A DNA stretch of 57,149 nt from Thermodesulfovibrionia bacterium (GCA_030694425.1 JAUXYI010000063.1:1-57149), one strand, 5' to 3'; positions 7,420 through 27,746 are shown, numbered from the stretch's first letter. The notes: a model not told the origin generated them from the sequence alone. Numbers and translations: made by a program.

Positions 7420-7851
7420 GGGAGTAGGGGGTAGTGGAAAAGATAAAAAGTTATAAGGATTTGATTGTATATAAAAAAGCTTACGAATTAGCATTGATGA
7501 TTTATAAGTTAACAAAGGACTTTCCAGATGTGGAAAAGTATGGAATGATATCCCAGATAAGAAGAAGTTGCATTTCTATCCCTTGTAACATTGCAGAGGG
7601 TTACAGGAGAGGCAAAAAGGAATATATCCAATTTCTAAAGATTGCATATGGCTCTTGCGCAGAATTAGAGACACAACTTTCATTATCAAAAGATTTAGGA
7701 TTTATTTCAGATAAAGAAAAATTTGAGAATATTTATAACCTGCAAAACGAGGTTTCAAAGCTACTGGGAACAATAATACATAAAATCAGCAAGGGAGAAG
7801 GTAAATGAAACTACCCTACACCCTACACCCTACACCCTATGCCCTATGCCC
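7420..7851. mobile_element. Four-helix-bundle cassette A: gene between inverted simple-repeat arms
   Basis: The left arm GGGAGTAGGGGGTAG (7420-7434) abuts the GTG start of the four-helix-bundle gene. The right arm (7811-7851), made of CTACCCTACACCCTAC-type units, starts two bases after its stop codon. Read as reverse complement, the left arm is CTACCCCCTACTCCC, the same repeat type. Two other genes of the same protein family (15888 and 27353) have the same arrangement with different arm sequences. No transposase is present. Confidence 0.5.
7434..7808 (+). CDS. Four-helix-bundle protein, bS23/IVS-encoded family
   Basis: A 124-residue protein with the family signature: (K/Y)xYKDLxVYxKAYEL near the start, YGxxSQIRRSxxSIPxNIAEG in the middle, and a helix with ELETQLxLSxDLGF. 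This family was first seen in intervening sequences of bacterial 23S rRNA genes and also occurs as free genes. The start is GTG with a GGGGGT ribosome binding site inside the left repeat arm. Its stop overlaps the ATG of the OmcE-like cytochrome by four bases (ATGA). Function is unknown; the repeat-bounded setting suggests a mobile cassette inserted into the cytochrome locus. Confidence 0.9.
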   Translation: MEKIKSYKDLIVYKKAYELALMIYKLTKDFPDVEKYGMISQIRRSCISIPCNIAEGYRRGKKEYIQFLKIAYGSCAELETQLSLSKDLGFISDKEKFENIYNLQNEVSKLLGTIIHKISKGEGK

Positions 7852-8605
7852 TTTATTACGCTACACGCTATACGCTGTTTTCTTTTTCTGCACGCTGCAC
7901 GCTATAGACTACACGCTAAATACTGCATACGCCGGCGTTGAAAACACAAAGCATAATCTTTCCACCTCAGGTCCTGGACCTATAAAGGCAACTATAGAAG
8001 AACAGGTGTGTATCTTCTGCCATACCCCTCATGCCTCTATTACCATCCCTTTATGGAACCATACCCTCTCACAGGCATCGTATATATTGCCATCAAAGAC
8101 AATACATGAATGGGCTGCTATGTTATCAATACCACAGAATCCTCCTGATGGTGATTCAAGACTCTGCCTTAGTTGCCACGATGGAACAGTAGCAATAGGC
8201 TCTATTGTTAATCTTGGGGGGGCTGCAACAACCATCAGCATGCAGGATATGGGTACAGGATATCTCACCCCCGAGGGAATGATGTCAGAAAGGGCAGGCG
8301 GTTACATCGGAACAGACTTAAGCGGGCATCATCCTGTCTCTATTGAGGTTAATGATACGCTTATAAATGATAAGAATACTCAGTGTAATAATAACGAGGT
8401 TTCATTCAGGATATGTTATCCTCAGAAGCCTGTTGTATTAAGACCCACGGACAACAGGTATAGCGCAGGGACCTCTACAGGTGTTGGGGTCCAGTGCTCC
8501 TCATGTCATGATGCCCATGATAATACATATGGTGACTTTCTGAGGATGCCAGAAGACGACCTTTGCACAAAATGCCATGTGCTGTGTTCTTCAGGATGCC
8601 AGTAG
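7805..8605 (+). CDS. OmcE-like tetraheme c-type cytochrome (possible filament subunit)
   Basis: A 266-residue protein with four CXXCH motifs. Its order of blocks is KHNLS, CIFCHTPH, PLWN, LCLSCHDGT, a HHPVS segment, CSSCHDAHDNTYGDFLR and LCTKCH. This order matches the OmcE-like tetraheme cytochromes of Geobacter and relatives as I know them, which polymerise into extracellular heme filaments. The extra histidines (HPVS and the CHxxH positions) could be distal or inter-subunit ligands. The signal peptide (about 44 residues, cut near AYAG) is written largely in simple repeats, CTACACCCTAC and CTACACGCTATACGCT. A propeller, a larger cytochrome, c7-type cytochromes and a prolyl isomerase surround it. 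Filament formation is inference. Confidence 0.7.
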   Translation: MKLPYTLHPTPYALCPLLRYTLYAVFFFCTLHAIDYTLNTAYAGVENTKHNLSTSGPGPIKATIEEQVCIFCHTPHASITIPLWNHTLSQASYILPSKTIHEWAAMLSIPQNPPDGDSRLCLSCHDGTVAIGSIVNLGGAATTISMQDMGTGYLTPEGMMSERAGGYIGTDLSGHHPVSIEVNDTLINDKNTQCNNNEVSFRICYPQKPVVLRPTDNRYSAGTSTGVGVQCSSCHDAHDNTYGDFLRMPEDDLCTKCHVLCSSGCQ

Positions 8606-8633
8606 AGGAGCGTGGAGGGAGTAGAATTGTAGG

Positions 8634-8652
8634 GGCTGTTCCCTGAACAGCC
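8634..8652 (+). terminator. Short hairpin after the OmcE-like gene
   Basis: GGCTGTTC-CCT-GAACAGCC forms an 8-bp stem with a 3-base loop, 29 bases after the stop codon. No run of T follows, so it may be a transcript-end stabiliser rather than an intrinsic terminator. Confidence 0.4.
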
Positions 8653-8657
8653 TATGA

Positions 8658-8748
8658 ATTTGTTTTATTTTGTCATTCCTGCGAAAGCAGGAATCCAGAA
8701 ACTAAAGGCTCTGGATTCCGTGTCAAGCACGGAATGACGAACAAATTT
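8658..8748. repeat. REP element with AATTTGTT inverted ends
   Basis: A pair of REP arms (GTCATTCCTGCGAAAGCAGG and the CCGTGTCAAGCACGG arm ending GGAATGAC) lies between AATTTGTT and AACAAATT. It separates two cytochrome genes and ends just before the ribosome binding site of the second. Confidence 0.85.
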
Positions 8749-8759
8749 GGAGAAGTAAT

Positions 8760-9839
8760 ATGGCAATCGCAAGAAAAAGTTTTTTTCTAACAGTGACGGC
8801 TTGTATCTTTTCCGTAGCAATTGGGTTAGGCTATGCCTTCAATGAGACCCATCTTGACAATTCTAAATTGCCACAGGGTTGTAGCGCCTGTCACAGAAGT
8901 CATGGCGCAAGGGCAACTGTAATGCTTGAGAGACCGAAGGATGAATTATGTTTTAAATGCCATGGACCCTTTAAAAAAGGGACTAAAGGAGAGGCAATGA
9001 CTGATATATACAGCGTTATCCTTAAGAGGGCTAATCATCCCATTTTACAAACAACCCGGTATCATGTCGCTGGTGAGAGTTTTCCAGAGAAGTCTTCATC
9101 AACCCCGAGGCATGTCTCCTGTTATGACTGCCACAACCCCCATTTATCAAAAAAAGATAAAGCGATTAATGAAGTCAGAGGATATTCTGGGAAAGGGGTA
9201 ATTATAAGACGTATAGAAAATGAATTTGAGGTTTGTTATAAATGTCATTCAGATAGCGCTAATCTTCCTGCTGATGCAAGTAATATAGCTCGCAAATTTG
9301 ACCCCGGCAATGCCTCCTTTCATCCGATAGAAACTGTAGGAAAAAACACCACGGTACCAAGCCTTCAAGGAACACTCTCCGTCCTTAGCATAATAACCTG
9401 TTCCGACTGTCATGGAAATGATGACAAAGGTGGTCCGAAGGGACCTCACGGCTCCAACTATGAGTTTATGCTAAAAGAGAATTATGACATGGACTCAGGT
9501 CCTGAAAGTCCTTACGCCTATGAACTTTGCTATGGATGCCACGGAAGGGGCAGTATACTCAATGACGAAAGCTTTAAATCCCATAAAGCGCATGTGCTCT
9601 ACAACAATGAATCGTGTTATGCCTGTCATGACGCTCATGGAAGCAGTGGCTATGAGAATCTCATAAATTTTGATACGAGGCTTGTCACTGCAAATTCCCT
9701 CGGACAGCTTAACTATATGCCGCTTATAACTGGAAAACCCAGGTGCTTTTTAAGCTGTCATGTGGATGGCGTAACATATGAGCATAAAATGACAGGCTTT
9801 AACTATTGTGTAAACTCCAATTGCCCACCCGGATGGTGA
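8760..9839 (+). CDS. Multiheme c-type cytochrome, 7 CXXCH plus one CX3CH (paired-CXXCH type)
   Basis: A 359-residue protein with a signal peptide (residues about 1-27). It contains CSACH, CFKCH, CYDCH, CYKCH, CSDCH, CYGCH and CYACH, plus a noncanonical CFLSCH. Several sites follow the doubled-CXXCH spacing (CSACHRSHG...LCFKCHG). GGAGAAGTAAT precedes the ATG. It is the last gene of the plus-strand barrel-propeller-cytochrome run and faces the c7-type genes tail to tail. It is probably a periplasmic or surface electron carrier for the conduit or filament. If CX3CH binds heme, the protein is an octaheme cytochrome. Confidence 0.85.
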   Translation: MAIARKSFFLTVTACIFSVAIGLGYAFNETHLDNSKLPQGCSACHRSHGARATVMLERPKDELCFKCHGPFKKGTKGEAMTDIYSVILKRANHPILQTTRYHVAGESFPEKSSSTPRHVSCYDCHNPHLSKKDKAINEVRGYSGKGVIIRRIENEFEVCYKCHSDSANLPADASNIARKFDPGNASFHPIETVGKNTTVPSLQGTLSVLSIITCSDCHGNDDKGGPKGPHGSNYEFMLKENYDMDSGPESPYAYELCYGCHGRGSILNDESFKSHKAHVLYNNESCYACHDAHGSSGYENLINFDTRLVTANSLGQLNYMPLITGKPRCFLSCHVDGVTYEHKMTGFNYCVNSNCPPGW

Positions 9840-9861
9840 GAAAGGCAAGGATTTGGTTTTA

Positions 9862-10212
9862 TTAGGGCTTATTCTCTTCCTTTTTCTCAATATTCTCAAT
9901 AACAAATACGAACATATCTCTACACATTTGAAGGCGTTTCAGATAGACCTTTTTGGGAGTTTCATCAAGGGTCTCAATGGTCGCTTTCAATTTATCACAT
10001 CTCTCAATAAGGGATGTTAATTCCTCCTTTGTTAGAGACATGGCAGTATTTGTTTTTGAACAGATGTCATTAAACTCTACCCTCCAGTCATTCTCTGCAT
10101 AAGAGCGTAGAGGAAAAAATAGATTCCCCTTTTCTTCTAAAAAATACGGGACACCCCATAGTGAGATATACATTGTTATCAAGGCTATCAAAAGAGCCTT
10201 AAACCATTTCAT
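9862..10212 (-). CDS. Small exported protein of unknown function
   Basis: A 116-residue protein. An N-terminal hydrophobic segment (about residues 5-22) is a signal peptide or anchor, followed by a mostly helical, charged periplasmic part with three cysteines and a KKEENKP tail. It has no heme motif and no family I recognise. Its ATG overlaps the stop of the upstream hexaheme cytochrome (TGATG), so the two are translationally coupled, and it probably serves that cytochrome. Confidence 0.75.
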   Translation of the reverse strand: MKWFKALLIALITMYISLWGVPYFLEEKGNLFFPLRSYAENDWRVEFNDICSKTNTAMSLTKEELTSLIERCDKLKATIETLDETPKKVYLKRLQMCRDMFVFVIENIEKKEENKP

Positions 10213-11006
10213 CAGTATTTACCCCAGTAGTCACTCATCAATGGATGACAGCGATTACAATGATCCATGGGGAATGCCACATTTAGATGGCATACACCAC
10301 AGAATTTCTTTTGAAGAATTTTTTCCATTGAAAAGTGTTGAGTTTCCTTTTTTTTGACGGTAAAGACATCAGGATGACAATTATTACAGTCAAGCCACTG
10401 AATATGAGGATTGTGAGGAAATATTGCAGGAGGTATGCCAAACATTTCTGCTTCAAGGAGTAGTATTTTATTAAATGTGAAGCCCTCAAGCGGCAGCGGC
10501 ATGATCATCAGATAATGGGCAGGTTTGATCATGTCTTTATCCATCGCTTTTACCCAGTCAATACCATTACCGAATTTTGCTTTAGGAAGCCCTGAAAGTT
10601 CAGAAAACTTTTCTTTTCCGTAAGTTATGTTACCATTATGGCATTTTTCACAGTGAGGCCTGTCGTGGCCAAATACAGTCTTTCCGTCGTGGCAGCCACT
10701 TGCTCCACAATACATGCCTGCCTTGTTTGCAGCCTCTGTTATCTCTGTTGTATTGACTTGGAAATTGAATTCGAGCTCAAAATGGCAGACCCTGCAGGTA
10801 TGTTTCTGCCTGTGAATCCAGTGCGAGAATGTAGCAGGCTTAACATTGTTTTTCTCAGAGGTTCTGTTGATAAGTATGTTCCCAAATTTATAATCAGGAG
10901 GTAAGGGCGGAAGAGTAAAGAATTGCCCCTTGGGTTCCAATGTGAAAATGAGTAGCAGTAATGTGCTTATTGTTACAATCTTTATTGAACGGCTTTTATA
11001 TGACAT
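10212..11006 (-). CDS. Hexaheme c7-type cytochrome with one CX4CH site
   Basis: About 264 residues with an N-terminal signal anchor. Two c7-type triheme units are visible, each beginning with an F(S/P)HxxH stretch. Heme sites are CRVCH, CGASGCH (CX4CH), CEKCH, CNNCH, CGVCH and CNRCH. It is a paralogue of the next gene upstream (10982), where the CX4CH site is a normal CGTCH. The frame can start at TTG 11015 or ATG 11006; both overlap the upstream gene. A periplasmic electron shuttle between inner-membrane oxidoreductases and the outer-membrane conduit is the expected role of such proteins. Confidence 0.85.
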   Translation of the reverse strand: MSYKSRSIKIVTISTLLLLIFTLEPKGQFFTLPPLPPDYKFGNILINRTSEKNNVKPATFSHWIHRQKHTCRVCHFELEFNFQVNTTEITEAANKAGMYCGASGCHDGKTVFGHDRPHCEKCHNGNITYGKEKFSELSGLPKAKFGNGIDWVKAMDKDMIKPAHYLMIMPLPLEGFTFNKILLLEAEMFGIPPAIFPHNPHIQWLDCNNCHPDVFTVKKKETQHFSMEKILQKKFCGVCHLNVAFPMDHCNRCHPLMSDYWGKY

Positions 11007-11824
11007 CTCTGACAATCAAGCATTGGGAATGCCACTGTTCTGTGACATGCACCGCAATATTTGCCTTCAAAATTATTTACACATGTGAATTTTGTAATGC
11101 CTTTTTTAACACCAATAAATATTTCAGGATGACAGACCTCACACCCATTCCAGACCGTATGTTTCTTATGGGAGAATATGATGTTGGGTATCCCTTCAAC
11201 CTTTGCTTCTAAATCAAAATCTTTTGGTGCTTCAAGTTGGAAACTTCTTATAGATACCCCCTCAAGAAAATCAATAGGTTTTATAAGCCCTTCAGCCTCA
11301 GCCTTTTCCCAGTCAATACCATTTCCAAACCTCCCTCTTGGCAGTTTCTCAGTAAATGTATAAAAGTCGTATTCTCTTTTTACATTCTTACCCAGAGAAT
11401 GGCATCTGACACACCTTTTAACATCTTCCTCCTGAAAATTCTTTGAACATGAAGCAAATACCTCCCTGTCGTTATAAACCATCTTCCCATTATGGCATGT
11501 TCCACAATAGTAACCTTTCTTATTGTCAGACGCCCTTATCCCTGTTGCACTTGCCTCCATTGCAAAGGCTATGTCAATGTGGCAGAGTCTGCAGGTAAAC
11601 CGTGCCCTGTGGAGCCAGTGATCGAATACAACAGGCGCTGAGGGTTCTTTTAGATGTACAGGGTACCAAAGTTCTTTGTAATTATCAATTATCACCCTCC
11701 CATATTCATGAGGTAAGGGTCTTTTCTTTTTGACCCCCCCGCCAATCTGAGCTAATGTCAGGCCCGTGAAAGTCAGACCAATAAAAAAAAGAATAAGAAA
11801 CATAATATGTAATAACCTTTTCAT
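10982..11824 (-). CDS. Hexaheme c7-type cytochrome
   Basis: A 280-residue protein with a signal peptide (about residues 1-25, ending LTLAQ). Six CXXCH sites (CRLCH, CGTCH, CVRCH, CEVCH, CGACH, CQRCH) form two triheme c7 units, separated by a linker with FGNGIDWEKA, which is also present in the paralogue at 10212. AGGATGGTG lies before the ATG. It is the first gene of the minus-strand trio 11824-9862, with an AT-rich upstream region (11825-11940) that probably holds the promoter. It is likely a periplasmic electron carrier. Confidence 0.87.
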   Translation of the reverse strand: MKRLLHIMFLILFFIGLTFTGLTLAQIGGGVKKKRPLPHEYGRVIIDNYKELWYPVHLKEPSAPVVFDHWLHRARFTCRLCHIDIAFAMEASATGIRASDNKKGYYCGTCHNGKMVYNDREVFASCSKNFQEEDVKRCVRCHSLGKNVKREYDFYTFTEKLPRGRFGNGIDWEKAEAEGLIKPIDFLEGVSIRSFQLEAPKDFDLEAKVEGIPNIIFSHKKHTVWNGCEVCHPEIFIGVKKGITKFTCVNNFEGKYCGACHRTVAFPMLDCQRCHIKAVQ

Positions 11825-11941
11825 GTCACCATCCTATATAATCAAAAATACATATCAAAATGTAAAAATATTTTTGAATTTTAATTTATCATTTTAATTT
11901 TTGCATTTTTATTTTTAATTTAACCGTTGTATGCATTTGTG

Positions 11942-11972
11942 TTCATTTCTACACGCTACACCCTATACGCTA
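11942..11972. repeat. CTACACGCTACACCCTATACGC simple-repeat block
   Basis: A degenerate run of CTACACGCTA/CACCCTATACGCT units overlaps the stop codon of the propeller lipoprotein gene. It belongs to the same repeat type as 6226-6401 and 7858-7920. Confidence 0.75.
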
Positions 11973-13034
11973 CTTCTGTTCCTTCAGATACTGAAAGACC
12001 TGCACCCTGTGGTTAAATGTATCAGCAACATAGAGCCTGTCCTGCTTATCTATATACATTCCTGTTGGCAGAAAGAATTCGCCCGGCTTCGTCCCTGCGT
12101 TTCCTACCCATAAAAGGAGGGTTCCATCACTCTCAAAGACCTGAAAGTTATTAAAGGCAGTATCAACCACATATATATGCCCTTCTGAATCAACCCCTAT
12201 ACCATAGGGTCTTGTGAAAGTACCTGAAACATCCCCGAGCCTGCCAAACTTTTTAAGAAACCTTCCTTCCTGATCAAATACCTGAACCCTGAAATTAAGT
12301 GTATCGGCAATAAAAAGCCTACCTTCCCTGTCAAGCGCTAAATAACTGGGAAAATTAAATTCCCCGTCCCCATCACCCCTTTTCCCGATGGTAAAAAGAG
12401 CTTTACCATCCTTGTCAAAAACCCTTATAAGATGGTTCTGGGTATCTGTTACATAGAGTTTGTCCCTGTCTTCATCAAAGACCATACCTGATGGGTTCTG
12501 AAATTCTTTAGCTGCACCTATGCTCATTACTAAATCCCCTGTATTTTTATCAAGACCAAATACCTTATCAATCCTTGAGTCTGCAACAAAGATAATCCCC
12601 CTTTTGTTATCAACAGCAAGCCCAACAGGTCCTGCGAGTATTCCCTCACCAATGAATCTTAATGTATTCTTCTCTATATCAAAAATAACTATAATACTAT
12701 TCTCTGCATCAGCGACATATATATTTCCTGCGGAGTCAGCTACAACAGCAGTTGGCCTCTTCATGGGGTCCGCTACGTCTTCCCCTAAAAAAAAGCTGAG
12801 TAATGGATTTGGAGCTTTGAAATCGTATCGGTTTGACCACTGGGTAATCCATTTAATCCTCGGCTTCTCAGGTAAAGGTGGCCAGATATATTCTCCTGTT
12901 GGTTTTTTATATGTAGGAGCGGCACAACCAGCAATAATCAGCAGCAAGCAGTAAGCAGTAAGCAGTAATATAATTTGAATGTTTACCCCGCTCTTTTGAA
13001 AAAGGGCGGGGTTCATAAATTTGTAAGTTCGCAT
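11970..13034 (-). CDS. Six-bladed beta-propeller (NHL repeat) lipoprotein
   Basis: A 354-residue protein with lipobox LIIAGC (cysteine 37) and about six NHL repeats, for example GDGEFNFPSYLALDREGRLF followed by IADTLNFRVQVF. It is a paralogue of the protein at 6260; both share the KPRI-W start of the mature part and the terminal ADTxNxRVQxFQ block. GAGAGAGG precedes the ATG. The pre-lipobox region contains a translated CCCCGCC...GGCGGGG palindrome (PALFQKSG) and AGCAGTAAGCAGTAAGCAG repeats (LTAYCLLL), so repeats have also entered this leader. It lies between the c7 cytochromes and the prolyl isomerase. Confidence 0.87.
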   Translation of the reverse strand: MRTYKFMNPALFQKSGVNIQIILLLTAYCLLLIIAGCAAPTYKKPTGEYIWPPLPEKPRIKWITQWSNRYDFKAPNPLLSFFLGEDVADPMKRPTAVVADSAGNIYVADAENSIIVIFDIEKNTLRFIGEGILAGPVGLAVDNKRGIIFVADSRIDKVFGLDKNTGDLVMSIGAAKEFQNPSGMVFDEDRDKLYVTDTQNHLIRVFDKDGKALFTIGKRGDGDGEFNFPSYLALDREGRLFIADTLNFRVQVFDQEGRFLKKFGRLGDVSGTFTRPYGIGVDSEGHIYVVDTAFNNFQVFESDGTLLLWVGNAGTKPGEFFLPTGMYIDKQDRLYVADTFNHRVQVFQYLKEQK

Positions 13035-13104
13035 TGCCTCTCTCTTCCTTATCGAGTATAAAGAGCTATATTAATACAAACGAATTAATAAATAACAGAT
13101 GCTG

Positions 13105-13335
13105 AAACGAGTTCAGCATGACAAAATAGAGGTGTCATTCCGAACTTGTTTCGGAATCTCAAAATTTCAATATAAATGCATTTAATGTGGTGGTATTAAT
13201 ACAAACGCAATAAATGTTGTTACATTGTCATTGCGAGCGACCAACGGGAGCGTGGCAATCCCCTTGTAAATACAGAGATTGCTTCGTCGCTTCACTCCTC
13301 GCAATGACACTTTACTTAATGCGTTTGTATTAGTA
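13105..13335. repeat. Noncoding gap with two palindromic elements
   Basis: The 342-base gap between the propeller and surA genes holds GCTGAA...TTCAGC and GTCATTCCGAAC...GTTTCGGAAT palindromes (about 13105-13165) and a composite element at 13194-13335. The composite has inverted ends TAATACAAACGCA / TGCGTTTGTATTA around a REP pair. No gene was found. The surA 3' side is AT-rich. Confidence 0.8.
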
Positions 13336-13376
13336 TATAAAAAACTGAATAAACTTTTCATTAAGATTTTTTAAAA

Positions 13377-14462
13377 TTAAGGACTTACAGGTTGCAGATA
13401 CTCTATCCTTGCCTTCTCCCTCATGGTCTTAAGCCATTCCTCTATTCTTTCCTTCTTTTTCTTTTCCTTTAATTTATTCTTTATTCTATCCCTAACTTCA
13501 TCAAAAGAAAGCTGTTGTCCCTGTTTCCTGTCTTCTATTTTAATTATATAAAAGCCCTGTTCTATCTCTAAAGGACCCATTACTTCCCCAATCTTCGCAC
13601 CAAAGGCAAGAGCCTCTATTTCTGGCATCATCCTTCCCTTGTGAACATACCCAAGCTCTCCCCCTTTAACCCTATAAGGGTCATCAGAATATTCATAAGC
13701 GAGGGCTGCAAAATCTTCGCCTTTTTTAATTCTTTCCAACAGCCCCTCCGCCATTGCCTTTGCCTCTTCCTTATTCCTTGTTTTCTTGACCTTTGTTCCC
13801 TGTCCCTCTTTTTCAAATTCCCCCTTGCCCTCATTTAATCCCCCTGCATCCCCCTTTGTCAAAGGGGGGAAGGGGGAATTTTTCTCAAACCTGACCATTA
13901 TGTGCCGTAGTTTGACTTGCTCTAATTCCTTATACTTTTGAATGTTATTTTCATAATATGCCTTTATCTCCTCATCTGATACCACTATCTTATCTTCCAC
14001 TTCCCTCTTAAAGAGTTTCTCTATTATAATGTCCTTTTCTATATTAGCCTCTAAATCTTCTATTGTAAGTTTACTACGTTTGAGGGCCTCTTTAAATTCC
14101 TTATTAGAAGGAAATCTTTTTTTAATATCCTCAATCTTATCCTTTATTTCTTTCTTTTCCGCCTTTATCCCCTGTGCCTTTGACTCCTGAAACTGGAGTT
14201 CTCTATCTATAAGCCTTTCCATTGCCTCCTTCCTATAGCCTGCCCTTTTCTCAGGAGAGACATTCCTGTGGAATAAGGTTCGGGGAATAATCCTGTCTAT
14301 CTCCTCCTCAACCTGATTCAGTGTTATGGGGATACTATTTACTTTAACAACAACTACGGAAGGGTTTTCAGATAGGGATACCATTGGTAATAATAAATAA
14401 CCTATAAAAAAGGAAAAACTAAGGAGGACTACAACGAAATGTTGTCTATGTTTAATCGCCAT
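13377..14462 (-). CDS. SurA-like periplasmic peptidyl-prolyl cis-trans isomerase
   Basis: About 361 residues. A signal anchor is followed by a helical SurA N-terminal region (NSIPITLNQVEEEIDRI, then AMERLIDRELQF) and a parvulin (PpiC) domain (LRHIMVRF ... GGELGYVHKGRMMPEIEALA ... GFYIIKIEDR). The open frame reaches 14612, but those codons are a REP, so I start at ATG 14462. A 65-base palindromic element (13816-13880) is translated in frame in a loop of the parvulin domain. Prolyl isomerases accompany several cytochrome-filament and conduit loci, so the substrate may be a cytochrome or the barrel; this is inference. Confidence 0.85.
   Translation of the reverse strand: MAIKHRQHFVVVLLSFSFFIGYLLLPMVSLSENPSVVVVKVNSIPITLNQVEEEIDRIIPRTLFHRNVSPEKRAGYRKEAMERLIDRELQFQESKAQGIKAEKKEIKDKIEDIKKRFPSNKEFKEALKRSKLTIEDLEANIEKDIIIEKLFKREVEDKIVVSDEEIKAYYENNIQKYKELEQVKLRHIMVRFEKNSPFPPLTKGDAGGLNEGKGEFEKEGQGTKVKKTRNKEEAKAMAEGLLERIKKGEDFAALAYEYSDDPYRVKGGELGYVHKGRMMPEIEALAFGAKIGEVMGPLEIEQGFYIIKIEDRKQGQQLSFDEVRDRIKNKLKEKKKKERIEEWLKTMREKARIEYLQPVSP
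13816..13880. repeat. Palindromic element inside the surA coding sequence
   Basis: Inverted ends AATTCCCCCTT / AAGGGGGAATT (11 bp, perfect) with an inner CCCCCTTTGTCAAAGGGGG stem. It is read through in frame as a Gly/Pro/Lys-rich stretch in the parvulin domain. Confidence 0.85.
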
Positions 14463-14472
14463 TTTTATTTTT

Positions 14473-14568
14473 GTCATTCCGCACTTGATGCGGAATCCAG
14501 AGTCTTTCGGTTCTGGTTTGCCGTTTTCACGGGGACGATACCTGGATTCCCGCCTTCGCGGGAATGAC
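14473..14568. repeat. REP pair upstream of surA
   Basis: Arms GTCATTCCGCACTTGATGCGG and CCCGCCTTCGCGGGAATGAC flank a middle arm CCGTTTTCACGG. The pair lies between the polyferredoxin stop and the surA start and creates a false N-terminal extension of surA. Confidence 0.85.
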
Positions 14569-14587
14569 AACATTGTGCCTTCATTAA

Positions 14588-15856: not shown

Positions 15857-15887
15857 AGCATTTAATAGGGTTCAAGGATTCGAGGGG

Positions 15888-16347
15888 TCAAGGATTCAAG
15901 TGTTTGTTCTGTAAGGACTTAATAAGTGCCTTGAGCATCCTTTCAACCTCTCCTATTTCTTTCTGAAGTTTTTTTAAATCTTCAGCTTTAATAAAACCTA
16001 AATCCCCAGACAACAGTATTTGAGTTTCTAATTCACAAGTTGATCCATAAGCTACAGTGAAAGCAAAAAATAAGTTTACATACCCCCTCACCCTAACCCT
16101 CTCCCACAAGGGGAGAGGAGACTCTAAAATCCCCCCTCCCTTGACGGGAGGGGGCGAGGGGGAGGGGGAATTATGTAATTTTATTTAATTCCTTTACTAT
16201 AGATGGAACTGATACTGCAACCCTTCTTATCTGTGATATTAAGCCATATCTTTCCTCTTTCGGAAATTCTTTTGTTATTTTATAAATCTCTAAACATAGT
16301 TGATAGGACTTTTGCCAGACTTTTAAATCCTTGTAGTTCTTTAGCAT
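15888..16347 (-). pseudogene. Four-helix-bundle (bS23/IVS family) gene broken by a palindromic element
   Basis: The N-terminal half (LKNYKDLKVWQKSYQL ... YGLISQIRRVAVSVPS) reads from 16347 to about 16190. The C-terminal half (AYGSTCELETQILLSGDLGF ... ALIKSLQNK) reads from about 16060 to 15888. The expected NIAEG region between them is missing and replaced by the 16083-16169 palindrome with stop codons. Intact relatives are at 7434 and 27353. This is a clear case of repeat insertion or replacement killing a gene. The last codons of the gene lie within the left repeat arm. Confidence 0.85.
16083..16169. repeat. GC-rich palindromic pair that interrupts the four-helix-bundle gene
   Basis: CCCTCTCCC...GGGGAGAGG and CCCCCTCCCTTGACGGGAGGGGG stems. 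Nearly the same pair occurs at 32068-32155 and 2640-2735. Confidence 0.85.
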
Positions 16348-16438
16348 ATCACCGGAATCCTCGACCCCTCGAACCCTATTAATTTTTAGCATTTCACTTG
16401 AATCCTCGACCCCTTGACCCCTCGAACCCTTTTATTTT

Positions 16439-17101: not shown

Positions 17102-17130
17102 TTAAGCCTCCTGTTTTAATTTTTAAATAA

Positions 17131-17162
17131 AGGATTCATCCCGAATAATCGGGATGAATCCT
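17131..17162. repeat. 14-bp perfect hairpin upstream of the TorD gene
   Basis: AGGATTCATCCCGA and TCGGGATGAATCCT are inverted with a short AATA-type loop, about 30 bases upstream of the TorD start. The right half runs into the GAATCCTCGAACCCTTTT simple repeat. Confidence 0.7.
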
Positions 17163-17251
17163 CGAACCCTTTTAATATAATACTTTTCCCTCTAAAACTG
17201 CAAACCTTATTTCAACGTTCCGAAAATAGAGATAGAAAAACCAAAGCCGTG

Positions 17252-17410
17252 TCATACCTGTCATTGCGAGAACCCGAAGGGTTCGTGGCAATCCGACCTG
17301 AAAGGTCGTTACGAGGGCGAAGCCCGTGGTAATCTCAAACTGAGATTCCTCGCTTCACTCGGAATGACACCTCGTGTCAGATTGCTTCGCTTTGCTCGCA
17401 ATGACAATTT
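17252..17410. repeat. REP cluster in the FeS-TorD gap
   Basis: Five or more arms of the GTCATTGCGAG...GGAATGAC...GCTCGCAATGACA family, including AACCCGAAGGGTT and ACCTGAAAGGT stems. The gap 17102-17527 contains no gene. Confidence 0.85.
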
Positions 17411-18379: not shown

Positions 18380-18463
18380 TTTTTATCTCCTTTCTTCTTT
18401 TAATTTTCATTTCCTGTATCCCCGTCCTTTTTACGGGAAGGGGATACAGGGTAAACTATTTTC

Positions 18464-21493: not shown

Positions 21494-21516
21494 ATTTTTA
21501 TCCCTCCTTTCTTAAA

Positions 21517-22278
21517 TTATCTATTGACATGACAGTCTATGCACATTCCGGAGCCTGAATTGTCACCCCTGAGAAAGTACACCTGTGTTCCTGCTGACCT
21601 ACCAACGTCCATCGACTTTCCAGGATAGTCAACGGTATCATGGACCGCATGGCATGTAGCACATTCAAACTGGTTGTAATCTCCGGTATTACCTGTTTCA
21701 CTATAAAGCGGATATGGTCCTCTTGCTCCGATAATAGCCCTTTTATTTACATTGCTGGTGCTATAAGCTTGAGCCGCTCTGAATCCGTTATTCTCATCAT
21801 CACGGGCTGGGTTATAAGTAAAACCCACAGGATGCTCATTCAGCATGGTCGCCGCGTCCGACCCGAGATTGGTCTGAGGATTTACAAGTAATGTGGAATT
21901 AAAATTATAATCAGTATTTGCCACAGACCCTGGTCCTGGATAGTTAACAAGGGTGCTTGCTACACCATTATGACAGACCATACAATTGAAAGTTGCATAA
22001 TTGGCAGAGTCTATTAAGGTAGTTTCTGTCATATCAAAGGTTGGACTGGCATACATTGTATAGCTCGTAGGAGCACCTTGAGCCCTGTTCCATAAAGGAT
22101 ATTGTCCTGAGCCTGCGTGAGGCGTGTGACACATTGCACATCTTTCAATATCTGCGCCTGCTCCTAAATCACGCATAACAGCCACATCATGAGGAGTGCC
22201 TTCAATAATAGCCCATGCACTCATAGCAGTACCTATTATCAGCACCGCCACCGTCATTATACTTAATAGTTTCTTCAT
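21517..22278 (-). CDS. OmcE-like tetraheme c-type cytochrome encoded with the ArrAB-like enzyme
   Basis: A 253-residue protein with a signal peptide (residues 1-23, cut after AWA). Four CXXCH sites appear as ERCAMCHTPHAG, then PLWNR and SYTMYASP, NCMVCHNG, a NEHPVGF block, FECATCHAVHD, and MCIDCH near the C-terminus. This is the same block order as the 7805 protein and OmcE-like filament cytochromes. AAGGAGG precedes the ATG. It is the first gene of the operon, 23 bases upstream of the molybdoenzyme, so it is probably the enzyme's direct electron partner. Whether it polymerises is not visible from sequence. Confidence 0.72.
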   Translation of the reverse strand: MKKLLSIMTVAVLIIGTAMSAWAIIEGTPHDVAVMRDLGAGADIERCAMCHTPHAGSGQYPLWNRAQGAPTSYTMYASPTFDMTETTLIDSANYATFNCMVCHNGVASTLVNYPGPGSVANTDYNFNSTLLVNPQTNLGSDAATMLNEHPVGFTYNPARDDENNGFRAAQAYSTSNVNKRAIIGARGPYPLYSETGNTGDYNQFECATCHAVHDTVDYPGKSMDVGRSAGTQVYFLRGDNSGSGMCIDCHVNR

Positions 22279-22597
22279 ATTCTATACCTCCTTCTTTTCA
22301 TTTTTTAGACCTCCTCTTTTAATGTAAGACAGTGCTAAATTTGTCCTCATACTCTTCACTCACCACCCCCTTCATGAATAAGCCTGTTCAATTAAAAGAC
22401 TCCACCTTCGCCGTCTTTCCCCGAAAATGTCATGACGATTCCCCCTGAAAGAGGGAATACAGACTCCTTTCTTTTTTAAAGTTTTAGGTTTAGAGACAGT
22501 TAGAAACCTAACTGTTTAGTAAGTTAAGCAAAACGTATGCCAGTAGTAAATATTACGGAAAACCCTTTTAAAAAACGAAAAAAATGAACACAGGGTA

Positions 22598-22652
22598 TTG
22601 GTGATTTCTGTGATTTGATGAAATCACCATACATAGTTGGTGATTTCACCAA
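22598..22652. promoter_or_regulatory. Two TTGGTGA/TCACCAA inverted repeats upstream of the ArrAB-like operon
   Basis: 22600-22628 holds GGTGATTTC ... GAAATCACC (9-bp arms, 11-base spacer). 22637-22652 holds TTGGTGATTTCACCAA (7-bp arms, 2-base centre). The latter differs by one base from the perfect palindrome at 34437. They lie 320-375 bases upstream of the tetraheme start codon. Confidence 0.5.
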
Positions 22653-22725
22653 TATTCCAAGAAATTAACCACAGAGTTCACAGAGAATTTTTTTCTTAAA
22701 AATTATCTCTCCTCAATATTAAATG

Positions 22726-22825
22726 TCATTCCTCCCGACGTGTCGGGATCGGGAATCGTTCTTGAAGAAGGGTGCTGCACTGAGTAAGAAGGATTCCGAA
22801 TCCCGAAGCATCGGGAGAATGACAG
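22726..22825. repeat. REP pair
   Basis: GTCATTCC...CCCGACGTGTCGGG and CCCGAAGCATCGGGAGAATGAC arms. It is part of the 1.25-kb gene-free stretch 22279-23530. Confidence 0.8.
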
Positions 22826-22844
22826 AAAGCGAGGGGTATATTTT

Positions 22845-23150
22845 GCCACAGATTTTCACTGATAAAATTTCTGGACACGGATTCTCACAGATAAACACAG
22901 ATATGAACAAAATTAGACAGGATATACAGGATAAACAAGATATATAAAAATTAGAAAATCTTGCCTGCCTGTGCGCTGCACGCAGACAGGTAAATCCTGT
23001 TAATCCTGTCAGAATAATTTTATAATTTCCTATATATTAAAAAAATTTGATTATTGATAATCTGTGTAATCTGTGTTCATCTGTGTCCAAAACAAGTCTG
23101 TGTCTGTCTGTGGCTATCTTTCTCTGTGTCCCTGCCTACCGTCAGGCAGG
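22845..23150. repeat. CACAGATT/ACAGGAT simple repeats in inverted arrangement
   Basis: The left part has CCACAGATTTTCACTGATAA and AGATAAACACAGATATG with ACAGGATAAACA units. The right part has CTGTGTAATCTGTGTTCATC and TCTGTGTCTGTCTGTGG, the inverted form. No gene lies in 22279-23530. The sequence type is the same as the ends of the element at 44337. Confidence 0.75.
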
Positions 23151-23409
23151 TCTGGGGTTATTCAACTTTTTTACGAAAGAACCAAAAAATTTTTTACGCT
23201 TGAACCCTCGACCCCTTGAATCCTGCTTTTTCTGGTATGTTTATTGCATAAAATCTATGAAGTAATGGGTCTAATTTAATTCATGTAAAAATACTTATCG
23301 GTTATTAATATAAACGTAGGTTTTTTTGTAAACAAATTGAACAACTAAGGACAAACGTAGACAGTGAGTAACAATAGTGTTCGCTAAAAATTTAACAAGC
23401 TATCACTAT

Positions 23410-23512
23410 CTGTCATTCCCGCGAAGCTTGTCCCTGAAGGTAGTAAGCAGGGAGCGGGAATCCAGTAAAATCAAATATTCTCTGGATTCCGTGTCAAGCA
23501 CGGAATGACGAA
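23410..23512. repeat. REP pair upstream of the receiver-PilZ gene
   Basis: GTCATTCCCGCGAAGCTTGTCC... and CCGTGTCAAGCACGGAATGAC arms. The first arm contains CTGAAGGTAGTAAGCAGG, also found at 38895-38925 and 51560-51590. Confidence 0.85.
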
Positions 23513-23530
23513 TTGAGGAGGATTTTCAAG

Positions 23531-24247
23531 ATGAAAAGGGTTCTTATAGTTGATGACGAGAAATTGATACTTGATGGATTGTCAAAGTCTCTCTCCAATG
23601 AATATACCGAGATAACAACCATAGAAACAGGTAAAGATGCACTTAAGGAAATTACCTCACGTTTCTATAACCTTTGCATTTTAGATATCTATCTGTCTGA
23701 CATCAACGGACTGGATGTTATGAAGAAGATAAGGGAAATATCCCCTGAAACTAAGGTCGTTATCATGACAGCTTACCATATAACTAATGAAATGACGCAG
23801 GAGATAGAAGATAACGCCCATTACTTTATTAGCAAACCTTTTGACCTCTCTCAGATAAAAGTGATTTCGGAGACAGTATTGGCGCCAGGAGTCCAGGAAG
23901 GTCTTCAAAGAGACTGCAAATCTTCTGACGCAGGATTATCGGAGATTCGTTTTCGGAACGAATCTCCGACCGGAAACGATGGAAGAAGGTTTAAGAGAAC
24001 GCCGTTTACGAAAACCATTAATTACTTTGCGAGCGTCATGGAAGAAAAAGAGTTGAAGATATCAAACTTAAGGGGTGATATTGTTGATATCAGCGATGAG
24101 GGAATCGGCATAAGGACAGATTATCCCCTTAAGATAGGCTATATGGTGAGGTTTCCTGAAGAAACAAAACATGATATAGGAGTTGTCAAGTGGAGCATGT
24201 CTACAGGAGGTGGTTACAGGGTAGGAATTGAGTTTATAAAACGTTAA
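23531..24247 (+). CDS. Response regulator with C-terminal PilZ (c-di-GMP) domain
   Basis: About 238 residues. The receiver domain has an acidic DDE cluster near the start, the phospho-acceptor Asp in LCILDIYL, Thr in VIMTAYH, and Lys in ISKPFD. A PilZ domain follows with RRFKR (R-x3-R) and DISDEG (D-x-S-x-x-G), both c-di-GMP contacts in this family. The linker carries a translated GGAGATTCG/CGAATCTCC palindrome. GAGGAGG stands 8 bases before ATG 23531, which decides the start over the longer frame. It may couple phosphorelay to motility, surface or export behaviour. It lies tail to tail with the NtrC gene. Confidence 0.87.
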   Translation: MKRVLIVDDEKLILDGLSKSLSNEYTEITTIETGKDALKEITSRFYNLCILDIYLSDINGLDVMKKIREISPETKVVIMTAYHITNEMTQEIEDNAHYFISKPFDLSQIKVISETVLAPGVQEGLQRDCKSSDAGLSEIRFRNESPTGNDGRRFKRTPFTKTINYFASVMEEKELKISNLRGDIVDISDEGIGIRTDYPLKIGYMVRFPEETKHDIGVVKWSMSTGGGYRVGIEFIKR

Positions 24248-24250
24248 TCC

Positions 24251-25627
24251 TCATTCCAATCCGAATTTCTTTATCTGGTACCTTAGCGAATCGTAACTTA
24301 TATTAAGCAGTTTTGCAGCGAGGGTTTTATTATGTTCTGCCTTTTGAAGCGCCTGTATGATAAGGTCCTTTTCTAATTCTTCAAGGGATATTCCATCATC
24401 TGGAAGGATACATCTATATTTTGTAAGACAGCTCGCCCTTGCAGCTTCTAAAGGTAATTGTTCAGGCATTATCAATTCAGTGTTTTCAAGCACCACAATC
24501 CTCTCTATGACATTCTTCAATTCCCTCACATTACCGGGCCAGGAATAGGAAAGGAAGATTTTTTCTGCCTCAGGGGAAAAGCCTTTTGGATTGCTCTTTT
24601 TGTATTCAGTTGTAAAGTATCTGAGGAAATGCCTTGCAAGCGGAAGGATGTCCTCCTTTCTTTCCCTGAGCGGCAGTATATGGAGGGAAAATGTATTCAA
24701 CCTGTAAAACAGGTCCATCCTGAATTCCCCCTTTTCCACCGCTAAGCTGAGGTCTTTATTTGTAGTGACTATAACAGTGACATCTATGGGGAGCTCATTT
24801 TTACCTCCAATGCGTCTTATCGTCCTTTCCTCCAGCACCCTCAGGAATTTGCTCTGCAACCCTGTTTTCATGTCCCCTATCTCATCAAGGAGTATTGAGC
24901 CTCCGTCAGCAAGCTCAAAAAGACCTTTTTTATCAGACTTTGCGTCTGTGAATGCACCTTTTTCATAACCAAAAAGCTCACTTTCAAGAAGGGTCTCAGG
25001 CAGGGCAGTGCAATTAACCGGAATAAAAGGCGCGCACCTCAGGGTGCTATCACTATGTATCAAGGAATGGACACATCTTGCGAGAAGTTCCTTGCCGGTC
25101 CCGCTCTCCCCTGTAATGAGAACCATTGAAACACCTGCCTTTGCCATCTTATCAAGCTTTTCTTTTAACTCTTTTATTGCCTTTGACTCTCCAATGATGT
25201 CCTTATTAAAGGTCTCTGCAAATACCTTTCTCAGGTACTCAACCTCGTGCTTGAGTTTCCCCTTTTCTATGAGATTATTTATAACAATTTTTACCTTCTC
25301 TATATCAAGTGGTTTGGTTAGATAATCAGTGGCGCCGAATTTCATGGCCTTAACAGCGGTCTCAGCAGTGTCATCCGCTGTAAGCATTATGACCTCTGTG
25401 TCTATCCCTTGGGCTTTAATCTCCTGAAGTATATCAAGCCCGCTTTTTTCAGGGATATTTATATCAAGCAGTACTACATCAGGAGACCAGGAACTAATCT
25501 TATCAACCGCATCCTGTGCGCTGCCCTCGACGATTACTTCATAGCCCTCTTTTCTGAGCGCCCTTGAGAGCATTGATACAATAAGTTCTTCGTCATCCAA
25601 AAGAAATAGCTTACCCTTTTTTTTCAT
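24251..25627 (-). CDS. NtrC-family sigma-54 response regulator (GAFTDA variant)
   Basis: About 458 residues: receiver domain (DDEE, then VVLLDINIP with the phospho-Asp), an AAA+ domain with Walker A GESGTGKE and Walker B GGSILLDEIGDM, and a Fis-type helix-turn-helix at the C-terminus (LAAKLLNISYDSLRYQI). The sigma-54 contact loop reads GAFTDA rather than the usual GAFTGA. The partner is the heme-sensor kinase at 25805, encoded just upstream with a repeat element between. ATG 25627 follows an AAAGGTAA signal. Target promoters are unknown; a sigma-54 promoter occurs at 33988 and another at 52517. Confidence 0.92.
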   Translation of the reverse strand: MKKKGKLFLLDDEELIVSMLSRALRKEGYEVIVEGSAQDAVDKISSWSPDVVLLDINIPEKSGLDILQEIKAQGIDTEVIMLTADDTAETAVKAMKFGATDYLTKPLDIEKVKIVINNLIEKGKLKHEVEYLRKVFAETFNKDIIGESKAIKELKEKLDKMAKAGVSMVLITGESGTGKELLARCVHSLIHSDSTLRCAPFIPVNCTALPETLLESELFGYEKGAFTDAKSDKKGLFELADGGSILLDEIGDMKTGLQSKFLRVLEERTIRRIGGKNELPIDVTVIVTTNKDLSLAVEKGEFRMDLFYRLNTFSLHILPLRERKEDILPLARHFLRYFTTEYKKSNPKGFSPEAEKIFLSYSWPGNVRELKNVIERIVVLENTELIMPEQLPLEAARASCLTKYRCILPDDGISLEELEKDLIIQALQKAEHNKTLAAKLLNISYDSLRYQIKKFGLE

Positions 25628-25642
25628 GAAATTACCTTTATA

Positions 25643-25750
25643 ACACACCCCCAACCCCTCTTAATAGAGGGGAGTTCTATTGTTTCCCCTCTAAAAAGAG
25701 GGGATTAATGGAAGCACTTCTTTATTGAAGTGCTCCATTAAGGGGTGTGT
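25643..25750. mobile_element. Small non-autonomous palindromic element, copy 1
   Basis: Ends ACACACCCC / GGGGTGTGT (inverted). Inside are CCCCTCTTAATAGAGGGG, CCCCTCTAAAAAGAGGGG and GGAGCACTTC/GAAGTGC stems. About 60 bases from CCCCTCT to GGGGTGTGT are nearly identical to 34335-34404. There is no coding capacity. It sits between kinase and regulator genes. Confidence 0.75.
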
Positions 25751-25804
25751 ATTTTCATTCTCCTTTGTGCTCCCGACACTTCGGGATCGGCATGAATGTT
25801 TCAT

Positions 25805-27265
25805 TTAGTTTATTTTCTCTGGATTCCCGCTTTCGCGGGAATGACTTAATAAAGTAACCGGAAGAACAATCCTGAACGCTGTTCCCTCGCCCAGGGTGCT
25901 TTTCACGTTTATGTTACCTCCATGTTCCTCTACAATTCTTTTAGTAATAGCCAGGCCCATTCCAGTGCCTTTGGGCTTGGTTGTAAAAAATGGTTGAAAG
26001 ATTTGATCCATCATTTCTTTGCGAATTCCTTTGCCTGTATCAGCTATCTCTACCTGGATTGAATTTTTTGCCAAATCGTGGGAGGTTTTTATAGCTAATG
26101 TTCCACCGTTAGGCATTGCATCAACCGCATTAAGCAGTAAATTGAGGAATATCTGCTGTAGTTGCATCTGGTCAGCCATTATCATCGGAAGATTATTATC
26201 AAAGTCTCTCAAAACTTTAATCGCCTTTGAGTCATCAGGCGAAAGGTGCGGAATACTGATTGAAAATGTCAGGGAAATATCAATGATGTTATTTATATTT
26301 GTGGGTGTGAATTGCGGTTTAGGTGGTCGGGCAAAATTGAGAAGCTCCTTTAACAGTAATTCTATTCGTCTCACCTCCTTAATGGCCTTTAATAAAACAT
26401 CCCTATTTTCTTCTGAGATGCTGGAGTCCTCGCGCAAAACCTCCATTGAGACCTTAATGCCTGCAAGGGGATTTTTGATTTCATGGGCAAGCCCTGTTGC
26501 CAGCTCCCCGCACACACGCAGTTGTTCAGTCCGCTGCATATTAAGCATCTGCTCCTTTAATGAATCTGCCATTTCATTAAAAGATTTAGCCACCTCTCCA
26601 AACTCATCTTTCAGCCTTTCAATCCTGTAATCTAAATCACCACTTTTTAATCTCCGTGTTGCATTCAGGAGTATATTAAAAGGACCTGTAAATGACTTTA
26701 TAAAAACAAGACTTAAAACCGTTACCAAGAGAGGCCCGCTGGTTAATATTACAAAAAGCATGATTTTTGTATCTTCTATCTTTCCCATGGCTAATTTCGT
26801 CTTCTCAGTAAGACTACTGCTTGTCATTGTTATCATTTCATTAAGTTCTTTAATCAGGGAGTGTCCTATTGCAATGGCATCCTCTTTATAGAATCCTTTG
26901 ACATTCCCCTTTGCAGATGAAACTCTTCTCACTGTTTCTTCGTATTCCTGAAAACGATTTTTTAAATTAGAGAGCCTGTTCTTTATATTCTGGGTGTGAT
27001 GACAGTCAAAACATTTCTCAATTTCTCCCCCCAGGTTATTTGTATCCGTTAAGATGAGGACATAGTTTCCTTTCCCGGACTCAAGGTCAGACTGAGTCCT
27101 TACAACATTTATAAGCAGATGCTCTCTCAGTATTTCAACCTGATGGAGCTTTATAAGATTACTAAGTTCGGACGTAGTTGTTTCAATGATGACAATTATA
27201 TACAGGGTCAGGACGAAAAAAATCAAGGAAAAGACGGTTAGACCTATAAGTATCTTTTTCTTCAT
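25805..27265 (-). CDS. Histidine kinase with a periplasmic c-type heme motif
   Basis: A 486-residue protein. TM1 (about 5-27) and TM2 (about 168-192) enclose a periplasmic helical sensor with CFDCHH (Cys85, Cys88, His89), a c-type heme site. HAMP, a dimerisation/phospho-acceptor helix (GLAHEIKNPLAG) and an HATPase domain (NAVDAMPNGG, DTGKGI, GTGMGL) follow. Heme-containing sensors of this layout respond to redox state or small gases such as NO. The C-terminal tail (LLSHSRESGNPEKIN) is a translated REP. It precedes the NtrC gene, so the pair probably tunes a sigma-54 promoter to periplasmic redox state. Confidence 0.9.
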   Translation of the reverse strand: MKKKILIGLTVFSLIFFVLTLYIIVIIETTTSELSNLIKLHQVEILREHLLINVVRTQSDLESGKGNYVLILTDTNNLGGEIEKCFDCHHTQNIKNRLSNLKNRFQEYEETVRRVSSAKGNVKGFYKEDAIAIGHSLIKELNEMITMTSSSLTEKTKLAMGKIEDTKIMLFVILTSGPLLVTVLSLVFIKSFTGPFNILLNATRRLKSGDLDYRIERLKDEFGEVAKSFNEMADSLKEQMLNMQRTEQLRVCGELATGLAHEIKNPLAGIKVSMEVLREDSSISEENRDVLLKAIKEVRRIELLLKELLNFARPPKPQFTPTNINNIIDISLTFSISIPHLSPDDSKAIKVLRDFDNNLPMIMADQMQLQQIFLNLLLNAVDAMPNGGTLAIKTSHDLAKNSIQVEIADTGKGIRKEMMDQIFQPFFTTKPKGTGMGLAITKRIVEEHGGNINVKSTLGEGTAFRIVLPVTLLSHSRESGNPEKIN

Positions 27266-27321
27266 TGCTGATTTAAGTATAATAATGTTTATGGTATTTC
27301 TTCAAGTAGGAGATATGTAAG

Positions 27322-27746
27322 AATAGGTAAAGGTAAAGGTAAAGGCAAAGAAATGTATAAATCTTTTAAAGACATGCCGATTTGGAAGGAAGCAATGAGT
27401 ATAGCTGAACATATTTTCAGAATTACTGACAATCTGCCAAAGAAAGAGGATTATGGATTTACCTCACAAATCCGTCGAGCAGCATTAAGTATTTCTGCAA
27501 ATATTGCAGAAGCTTATGGACGAAATCATACAGCAGATAAAGTAAACTTTTACTATTTCGCAAGAGGTTCAATAACAGAAACACAAAGTCATTTGGATTA
27601 TGGAAGAAGGACAGAGTATCTTGAGAAGAAGATTGCTGAAGAACTTGATAGAAGATTATCCGAATTATATAACGATTTAAATAAAGTTATTTTGTCTCTC
27701 AAGGGTTTCCAGTAATGAATCTTCTCTACCTGTACCTTTACCTATT
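27322..27746. mobile_element. Four-helix-bundle cassette B: gene between inverted simple-repeat arms
   Basis: The left arm AATAGGTAAAGGTAAAGG... (27322-27350) and right arm ...GTACCTTTACCTATT (27727-27746) are inverted, with 14 perfect outer bases AATAGGTAAAGGTA. The enclosed gene starts 3 bases after the left arm and stops 11 bases before the right arm. The architecture is the same as cassettes A and C, but the arm sequence is unrelated. Confidence 0.55.
27353..27715 (+). CDS. Four-helix-bundle protein, bS23/IVS-encoded family
   Basis: A 120-residue intact member: SFKDMPIWKEAMSIAEHIF, YGFTSQIRRAALSISANIAE and a GSITETQSHLDYG helix. The RGS(I/C)xExxxxL block replaces the ELETQ block of the 7434 protein, so the two are different branches of the family. 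The ribosome binding site (AAAGGCAAAG) is formed by the repeat arm itself. Function is unknown; the protein is related to the accessory bundle (Avd) of diversity-generating retroelements, but no reverse transcriptase gene is present here. Confidence 0.88.
   Translation: MYKSFKDMPIWKEAMSIAEHIFRITDNLPKKEDYGFTSQIRRAALSISANIAEAYGRNHTADKVNFYYFARGSITETQSHLDYGRRTEYLEKKIAEELDRRLSELYNDLNKVILSLKGFQ

What the first reader, a model, noticed from the sequence alone, without database searches (positions are those of the whole stretch)
7420..27746. Three bS23/IVS-family genes each framed by inverted simple-repeat arms
At 7420-7851, 15863-16434 and 27322-27746 a four-helix-bundle gene lies almost exactly between two arms that are inverted copies of a short tandem repeat. 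The arms are CTACCCTACACCC, GAACCCTCGACCCCTTGAATC and AGGTAAAGGTAA, so the sequence differs but the design is constant. Arms supply the ribosome binding site or the stop codon. In rRNA intervening sequences this protein family also lies inside a stem formed by complementary ends. The unit may be a free-living relative of those elements, with arms that pair in RNA.
Basis: partly seen in the sequence, partly recalled or inferred. Interest (0 to 1): 0.85.

Follow-up and report, generated by a model that had tools for sequence, protein, structure and literature searches.

The report
Mobile hairpin elements carrying S23 genes
Small genes of unknown function found across many bacterial phyla turn out to lie inside a roughly 470-base insertion whose two ends are inverted copies of a short tandem repeat, so the 'intervening sequences' long known in ribosomal RNA genes look like one special case of a common mobile element that inserts between ordinary genes.

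Summary
Three PF05635 (S23/IVP, four-helix-bundle) genes in the window lie between inverted short-tandem-repeat arms; one is a pseudogene, and the first gene's upstream arm is short. Among 168 non-identical PF05635 loci from many bacterial phyla, 74% have strong inverted arms (score >=18), against 4.4% of matched intergenic control genes in the same contigs (p about 1e-42). Units are 7 nt (also 8 or 9), about 4.7 per arm, polarised AG-upstream/CT-downstream. Related proteins at unrelated sites share the arm unit, so arms travel with the gene. Empty sites exist: the hisA-hisF and yebC-ruvC junctions are seamless in most relatives; repeats appear only with the insertion, and gene-less hairpins or internally deleted copies also occur. 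Insertions are almost always co-directional with the upstream gene. The published Coxiella 23S rRNA IVS has the same parts (complementary 28-bp ends, tandem heptamers, S23 ORF). Best reading: a widespread mobile stem-loop element encoding only S23, of which rRNA IVSs are the ribosomal version. Pairing in RNA, RNase III processing and the route of movement are inferred; 24 of 41 relatives, this genome included, have no reverse transcriptase.

The parts
7419..7434 (+). upstream arm of element 1 (AGGGAGTAGGGGGTAG; 7-nt unit), also the likely ribosome-binding site
   Evidence: sequence; pairs with the downstream arm 14 of 16
7434..7808 (+). S23/IVP four-helix-bundle gene, element 1 (124 aa)
   Evidence: PF05635 127.9 bits; AlphaFold pLDDT 94.9, matches 2GSC, 2RLD and Avd 4DWL
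7813..7852 (+). downstream arm of element 1 (ACCCTAC x3.9 then CCCTATG), inverted relative to the upstream arm
   Evidence: TRF, alignment
15863..15902 (-). downstream arm (gene sense) of element 2, unit about 8 nt (GGGTTCAAGGATTCGAGG)
   Evidence: high-identity 40-nt match to the other arm, score 28
15930..16332 (-). S23/IVP pseudogene of element 2, split by a GC-rich palindromic repeat
   Evidence: two PF05635 pieces; 8 stops
16080..16176 (.). GC-rich palindromic repeat inserted in the pseudogene (not part of the S23 element; boundaries approximate)
   Evidence: sequence; similar repeat at 38280-38340
16395..16434 (-). upstream arm (gene sense) of element 2
27322..27344 (+). upstream arm of element 3 (AATAGGTAAAGGTAAAGGTAAAG, 6-nt unit)
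   Evidence: TRF, alignment
27353..27715 (+). S23/IVP four-helix-bundle gene, element 3 (120 aa)
   Evidence: PF05635 118.2 bits
27724..27747 (+). downstream arm of element 3 (CTCTACCTGTACCTTTACCTATTT), inverted
6226..6400 (.). possible gene-less pair of inverted AGCGTAT arms (6226-6250 and about 6345-6400)
   Evidence: sequence and TRF; no S23 gene between them; not tested further

Best explanation
Each unit is a small insertion element made of two inverted tandem-repeat arms (about 4-5 units of usually 7 nt) around one promoterless S23/IVP gene. It sits in host operons in the sense direction and is read from the host transcript. SHOWN HERE: the arms are specific to this gene family, polarised, absent from empty sites, and travel with the protein subfamily; gene-less and internally deleted copies occur; the same site can be hit by different subfamilies. 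INFERRED: the transcript folds into a stem with the S23 frame in the loop, as in rRNA intervening sequences; RNase III can cut that stem; the S23 pentamer, an Avd-like nucleic-acid-binding ring, recognises its own repeat units, probably several at once, and is needed for the element to spread, using host enzymes for the chemistry. rRNA intervening sequences are the version that landed in ribosomal RNA helices. That the gene lacks its own promoter is also inferred, from its orientation.
For: Enrichment 74% vs 4.4% of matched controls, p about 1e-42; mispaired flanks 4.7%. Period 7 in 75, 8 in 19, 9 in 4 of 98 loci, median 4.7 units in each arm. Polarity: AG>CT in the upstream arm in 118 loci, the reverse in 7. 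Arm unit tracks the protein: 5-mer sharing 0.32 at unrelated sites for 60-97% identical proteins vs 0.07 background, p=1.6e-63. Empty sites: hisA-hisF seamless in about 22 relatives, filled by two different S23 subfamilies, remnants in others; yebC-ruvC clean in 6 congeners, filled in one, internally deleted in another; Nostoc plasmids C052 (filled), C057 (empty), ATCC 53789 (gene-less hairpin, same unit). Sense orientation: upstream neighbour co-directional 143 vs 7; element antisense to both neighbours 0/140 vs 26/339 controls. Arms pair in the RNA MFE in 96%. Coxiella rRNA IVS has the same parts (PMC4990558). Fold matches S23 2GSC/2RLD and Avd in DGR complexes 4DWL/8UB7.
Against: No movement observed; many insertions are old and shared between genera. 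The G.U test for RNA pairing is weak and confounded (136 vs 93, p=0.005, with a similar A/T imbalance), and predicted pairing is equal on both strands. No clear target-site duplication; in the Nostoc pair the insertion replaced about 42 nt of target. Divergent PF05635 genes often lack arms: only 9 of 20 spirochaete loci have arms scoring >=16. S23 binding to arms is untested; protein-arm linkage could be common descent alone. No rRNA-located S23 locus was in my sample for direct comparison.
Confidence: 0.72

Rival explanations
1. DNA-level element: the inverted arms act as hairpins or protein-binding ends in single-stranded DNA during replication, as REPIN/RAYT or IS200-type ends do, and the RNA stem is incidental.
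For: Arms pair equally well on both strands. Some loci have each end as its own hairpin (L229-L231, L245). Gene-less hairpins occur, even inside the ruvC coding sequence.
Against: The protein is a plain four-helix bundle with no HUH or transposase domain. Strong sense-strand bias is not expected from a purely DNA mechanism, although selection or the need for read-through expression could give it.
Confidence: 0.35
2. Retro-element: the S23 pentamer, like Avd in diversity-generating retroelements, presents its stem-loop RNA to a reverse transcriptase supplied in trans, and the cDNA is inserted.
For: Fold homology to Avd in DGR reverse-transcriptase complexes; sense bias; one divergent PF05635 gene lies beside an RT-14 RNA.
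Against: 24 of the 41 genomes searched, this one included, have no PF00078 reverse transcriptase, and most of them carry several elements.
Confidence: 0.2
3. Not mobile: the arms are a conserved regulatory feature (S23 binds its own mRNA repeats, or the stem hides the ribosome-binding site), inherited with the gene.
For: The arm abuts the start codon and carries SD-like AG-rich units; arms of orthologues tend to co-drift (within-locus score 19.8 vs between-orthologue 16.6, p=0.004, selection bias noted).
Against: Same element subfamily with the same arms at unrelated sites; clean empty sites; gene-less arm pairs.
Confidence: 0.12
4. Artefact: simple heptamer arrays are common in these genomes and frame many small intergenic genes by chance.
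For: Arrays of the same type occur elsewhere at 0.09 per kb.
Against: 13-fold higher density beside S23 genes; inverted pairing 74% vs 4.4%; mispaired flanks rarely match.
Confidence: 0.01

Closest known systems
23S rRNA intervening sequences (IVS) of Leptospira, Coxiella, Salmonella
   Same: S23/IVP frame between complementary ends that form a stem; Coxiella IVS has tandem heptamers (GACAGAT) before the S23 start and a 28-bp stem (PMC4990558); IVSs without an ORF also exist.
   Different: Those lie inside rRNA helices; these lie between protein genes. RNase III cutting is shown there, untested here. Clear multi-unit tandem repeats in both arms are a general rule here.
REPIN / RAYT systems
   Same: Short inverted hairpin repeats around or near one gene; gene-less hairpin copies; extragenic sites.
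   Different: RAYT is an HUH (TnpA_REP) transposase; S23 has no catalytic domain. Arm sequence here differs from locus to locus.
Diversity-generating retroelements (Avd protein)
   Same: Same protein fold (4DWL, 8UB7); pentameric nucleic-acid-binding accessory protein.
   Different: No reverse transcriptase gene in this genome; no template or variable repeat was seen, though these were not searched for.
Heptamer repeats such as TAACTGA arrays of Beggiatoaceae and cyanobacteria (PMC4679880)
   Same: 7-nt tandem arrays, mostly intergenic, in overlapping groups of bacteria.
   Different: Described as direct repeats upstream of genes; a term search of that paper found no mention of S23. They may be derivatives of the same element type (not tested).

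Membership tests
PF05635 S23/IVP protein family | sequence above the curated cut-off and four-helix-bundle fold | tested here: met
   127.9 and 118.2 bits vs 33.8; AlphaFold model matches 2GSC/2RLD
rRNA intervening sequence (IVS) | inserted within an rRNA gene | tested here: not met
   neighbours are protein genes; rRNA motif scan of the loci found none spanning an S23 gene; Rfam on 20 loci the same
rRNA intervening sequence (IVS) | complementary ends that can form a stem around the S23 frame | tested here: met
rRNA intervening sequence (IVS) | excision or cleavage by RNase III | not testable with these tools
   needs RNA-end mapping
rRNA intervening sequence (IVS) | tandem heptamers upstream of the S23 start, as in Coxiella | tested here: met
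   period 7 in 75 of 98 loci with arrays in both arms; Coxiella from PMC4990558
Insertion sequence / transposon | encodes a transposase or recombinase | tested here: not met
   only the S23 frame lies between the arms; no catalytic domain in Pfam
Insertion sequence / transposon | target-site duplication | tested here: inconclusive
   none clear in the Nostoc pair, which has a target deletion, nor at yebC-ruvC
Diversity-generating retroelement | reverse transcriptase gene nearby | tested here: not met
   no PF00078 in the whole genome
REPIN/RAYT | HUH tyrosine transposase (TnpA_REP) | tested here: not met
   Pfam and fold show S23 only

The most novel reading that the evidence does not exclude
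A new class of self-spreading genetic element found in many bacterial phyla that needs neither transposase nor its own polymerase: a tandem-repeat stem-loop plus one ring-forming S23 protein that recognises the repeat unit, with the unit and the protein co-evolving; rRNA intervening sequences and many unexplained intergenic heptamer hairpins are its descendants.
Probability: 0.4. Interest if true: 0.93.

Novelty: new variant of a known kind. Interest (0 to 1): 0.82.

Why it matters
PF05635 ('four helix bundle protein', 'S23 ribosomal protein', '23S rRNA-intervening sequence protein') is annotated widely with no known function. The rule found here says what the gene belongs to, gives a simple test for membership, and offers cultured systems (Nostoc plasmids with filled, empty and gene-less sites) in which the old question of how rRNA intervening sequences arise and move can be tested. 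It also offers a plain reason why these genes turn up in CRISPR-cas operons (PMC3936711): the operons have been inserted into. And it gives a candidate source for many heptamer arrays and hairpins in bacterial intergenic DNA.

Tried and rejected
(1) Arm unit copied from the target site: suggested by the G006 hisA junction, where the unit repeats native hisA codons, but own arms match empty targets clearly better than other arms at only one of four sites; not supported. (2) Sense-strand G.U signature: weak and confounded by a general A/G excess in the upstream arm; predicted folding equal on both strands. (3) Dependence on a resident reverse transcriptase: absent in 24 of 41 genomes. (4) A direct rRNA-located S23 example: not found among the fetched loci; 20 spirochaete S23 loci contained none. 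(5) Gene-less hairpin census: 27 non-target inverted-arm pairs in 860 kb, but block-shuffled sequence gives 19, so only individual cases are used as evidence; several of the longer ones hold further S23 genes. (7) First version of the orthologue test timed out.

Full report
OBSERVATION. The window (contig C48:1-57149 of a 2.4 Mb genome) has two intact PF05635 genes, 7434-7808 and 27353-27715, and a third, 15930-16332 on the minus strand, that is a pseudogene: PF05635 matches it in two pieces and the stretch has 8 stops and a GC-rich palindromic repeat inside. Each lies between inverted short tandem repeats. Alignment of the upstream flank with the reverse complement of the downstream flank scores 28 (pseudogene), 24 and 12, against a mean of 10.2 for 49 other window genes, one of which reaches 20. 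The 12 is weak on its own because the upstream arm of the first gene has only about two units. All other complete PF05635 loci of this genome also have inverted arms with other units: AGAACAC, GTAACGA and AGTGCGGA.

IS IT MORE THAN CHANCE. I collected 80 loci from other bacteria with one peptide pattern and 89 further loci from the same taxonomic order. In 168 non-identical loci the median arm score is 21 and 74% reach 18; of 183 control genes in the same contigs with intergenic flanks on both sides 4.4% do, and of 58 short ones 3.4% (p = 1e-42 and 1e-23). Flanks mispaired between loci reach it in 4.7%. Some high-scoring 'controls' proved to be further S23 genes. The loci span Nitrospirota, Patescibacteria, Omnitrophota, Bacteroidota, Verrucomicrobiota, Spirochaetota, Cloacimonadota and others, and cyanobacterial plasmids. 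Caveat: the 80 loci were picked by a motif of one main clade; of 20 spirochaete loci 9 have arms scoring 16 or more, and most of the rest are divergent proteins.

ANATOMY. In 98 loci with a clear array in both arms the period is 7 (75), 8 (19) or 9 (4), with a median of 4.7 units in each arm. The element is about 470 nt. Arms are polarised: in gene sense the upstream arm has more AG than CT in 118 loci and fewer in 7. The arms end close to the start codon and begin close to the stop. In the predicted RNA fold of 128 elements the arms pair with each other in 96%, on either strand alike.

THE ARMS BELONG TO THE ELEMENT. Proteins 60-97% identical at sites with unrelated flanks share arm 5-mers at 0.32, against 0.07 for distant proteins (p = 1.6e-63). 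An example is unit AGCGTAT in L021 (Omnitrophota), L045 (Atribacteria), L037 and L050.

EMPTY SITES. hisA-hisF: in about 22 relatives the genes touch or nearly touch. In G000, G001 and G008 a 428-483 nt GTAACGA element separates them. In G006 a different four-helix-bundle subfamily sits there. G009 has an arms-only 83-nt insert, and G011 and G036 have remnants. yebC-ruvC: six congeners are seamless, G030 carries the element, and G029 has the same arms with most of the gene deleted. At the L157 site G012 has only a hairpin of the same unit, and G036 a hairpin of another unit. In cyanobacterial plasmids, Nostoc C052 carries the element, C057 (94.7% identical) is empty, and ATCC 53789 has a gene-less hairpin of the same unit GGGAACA; the C052 insertion also replaced about 42 nt of target, and no target duplication is evident. 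In cas operons, Anabaena 90 has cas6-S23-cas4, while Nostoc UHCC 0302 has a 23-nt gap there.

ORIENTATION. The upstream neighbour is co-directional in 143 loci and opposed in 7; the element is never antisense to both neighbours (0 of 140, controls 26 of 339). The gene therefore seems to rely on host transcription.

MECHANISM. The closest described object is the rRNA intervening sequence. For Coxiella the paper PMC4990558 reports a 428-nt element in helix 45, a 28-bp stem of terminal inverted repeats cut by RNase III, and three tandem heptamers GACAGAT just before the S23 start. The protein model (pLDDT 94.9) matches S23 structures 2GSC and 2RLD and, more weakly, Avd alone and in reverse-transcriptase complexes. 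My best reading is that the S23 ring binds the repeat units of its own element and helps it spread, with host enzymes doing the chemistry. Binding, RNA processing and movement are inferred. A resident reverse transcriptase is not required for carriage: none was found in this genome, nor in 24 of the 41 genomes in all.

NOVELTY. In the held literature I found rRNA IVSs, S23 genes in CPR rRNA insertions, S23 genes noted in cas loci, the PF05635-Avd homology and heptamer arrays, but no report joining S23 genes to inverted tandem arms outside rRNA. The search covers open-licence papers only.

VERDICT. The feature is real and general, and the free-living-relative interpretation is well supported. 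Moderate confidence in mobility by the element itself, low confidence in the chemistry.

Noticed in passing
window 7805-8605: The multihaem-cytochrome frame starts inside the downstream arm of element 1, so the arm would encode the first residues of its signal peptide (MKLPYTLHPTPYALC...); homologous elements in L138 and L140 show the same arrangement before another gene.
   Followed up: partly
L003 (hisF of this genome): hisF carries an in-frame CCCGTCA tandem array (LSPITRHPSPVTSL) that looks like an insertion in the coding sequence.
   Followed up: no
L210, L212, L213, L214 (ruvC): Hairpin or repeat insertions at one and the same position inside the ruvC coding sequence in four genomes, each with a different repeat.
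   Followed up: partly
window 16080-16176 and 38280-38340: GC-rich palindromic repeat (CCCTCACCC...GGGTGAGGG type), one copy splitting the S23 pseudogene.
   Followed up: no
window 44336-44494: Inverted pair of arms with 10-nt units (CACAGATTAA) without an S23 gene; similar arrays at 34182-34211 and 44351-44378.
   Followed up: no
L255, L252 (cyanobacterial plasmids): S23 elements between cas6 and cas4; earlier proposals that this family is CRISPR-associated (PMC3936711) may reflect such insertions.
   Followed up: partly
L239 1973-2118: Rfam RT-14 RNA just downstream of a divergent PF05635 gene without arms, pointing to a reverse-transcriptase-linked branch of the family.
   Followed up: no
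window 1544-1653: 4.5 copies of a 24-nt tandem repeat (GCTCGCAATGACACAAGCGAAGGG) overlapping the end of a reading frame.
   Followed up: no
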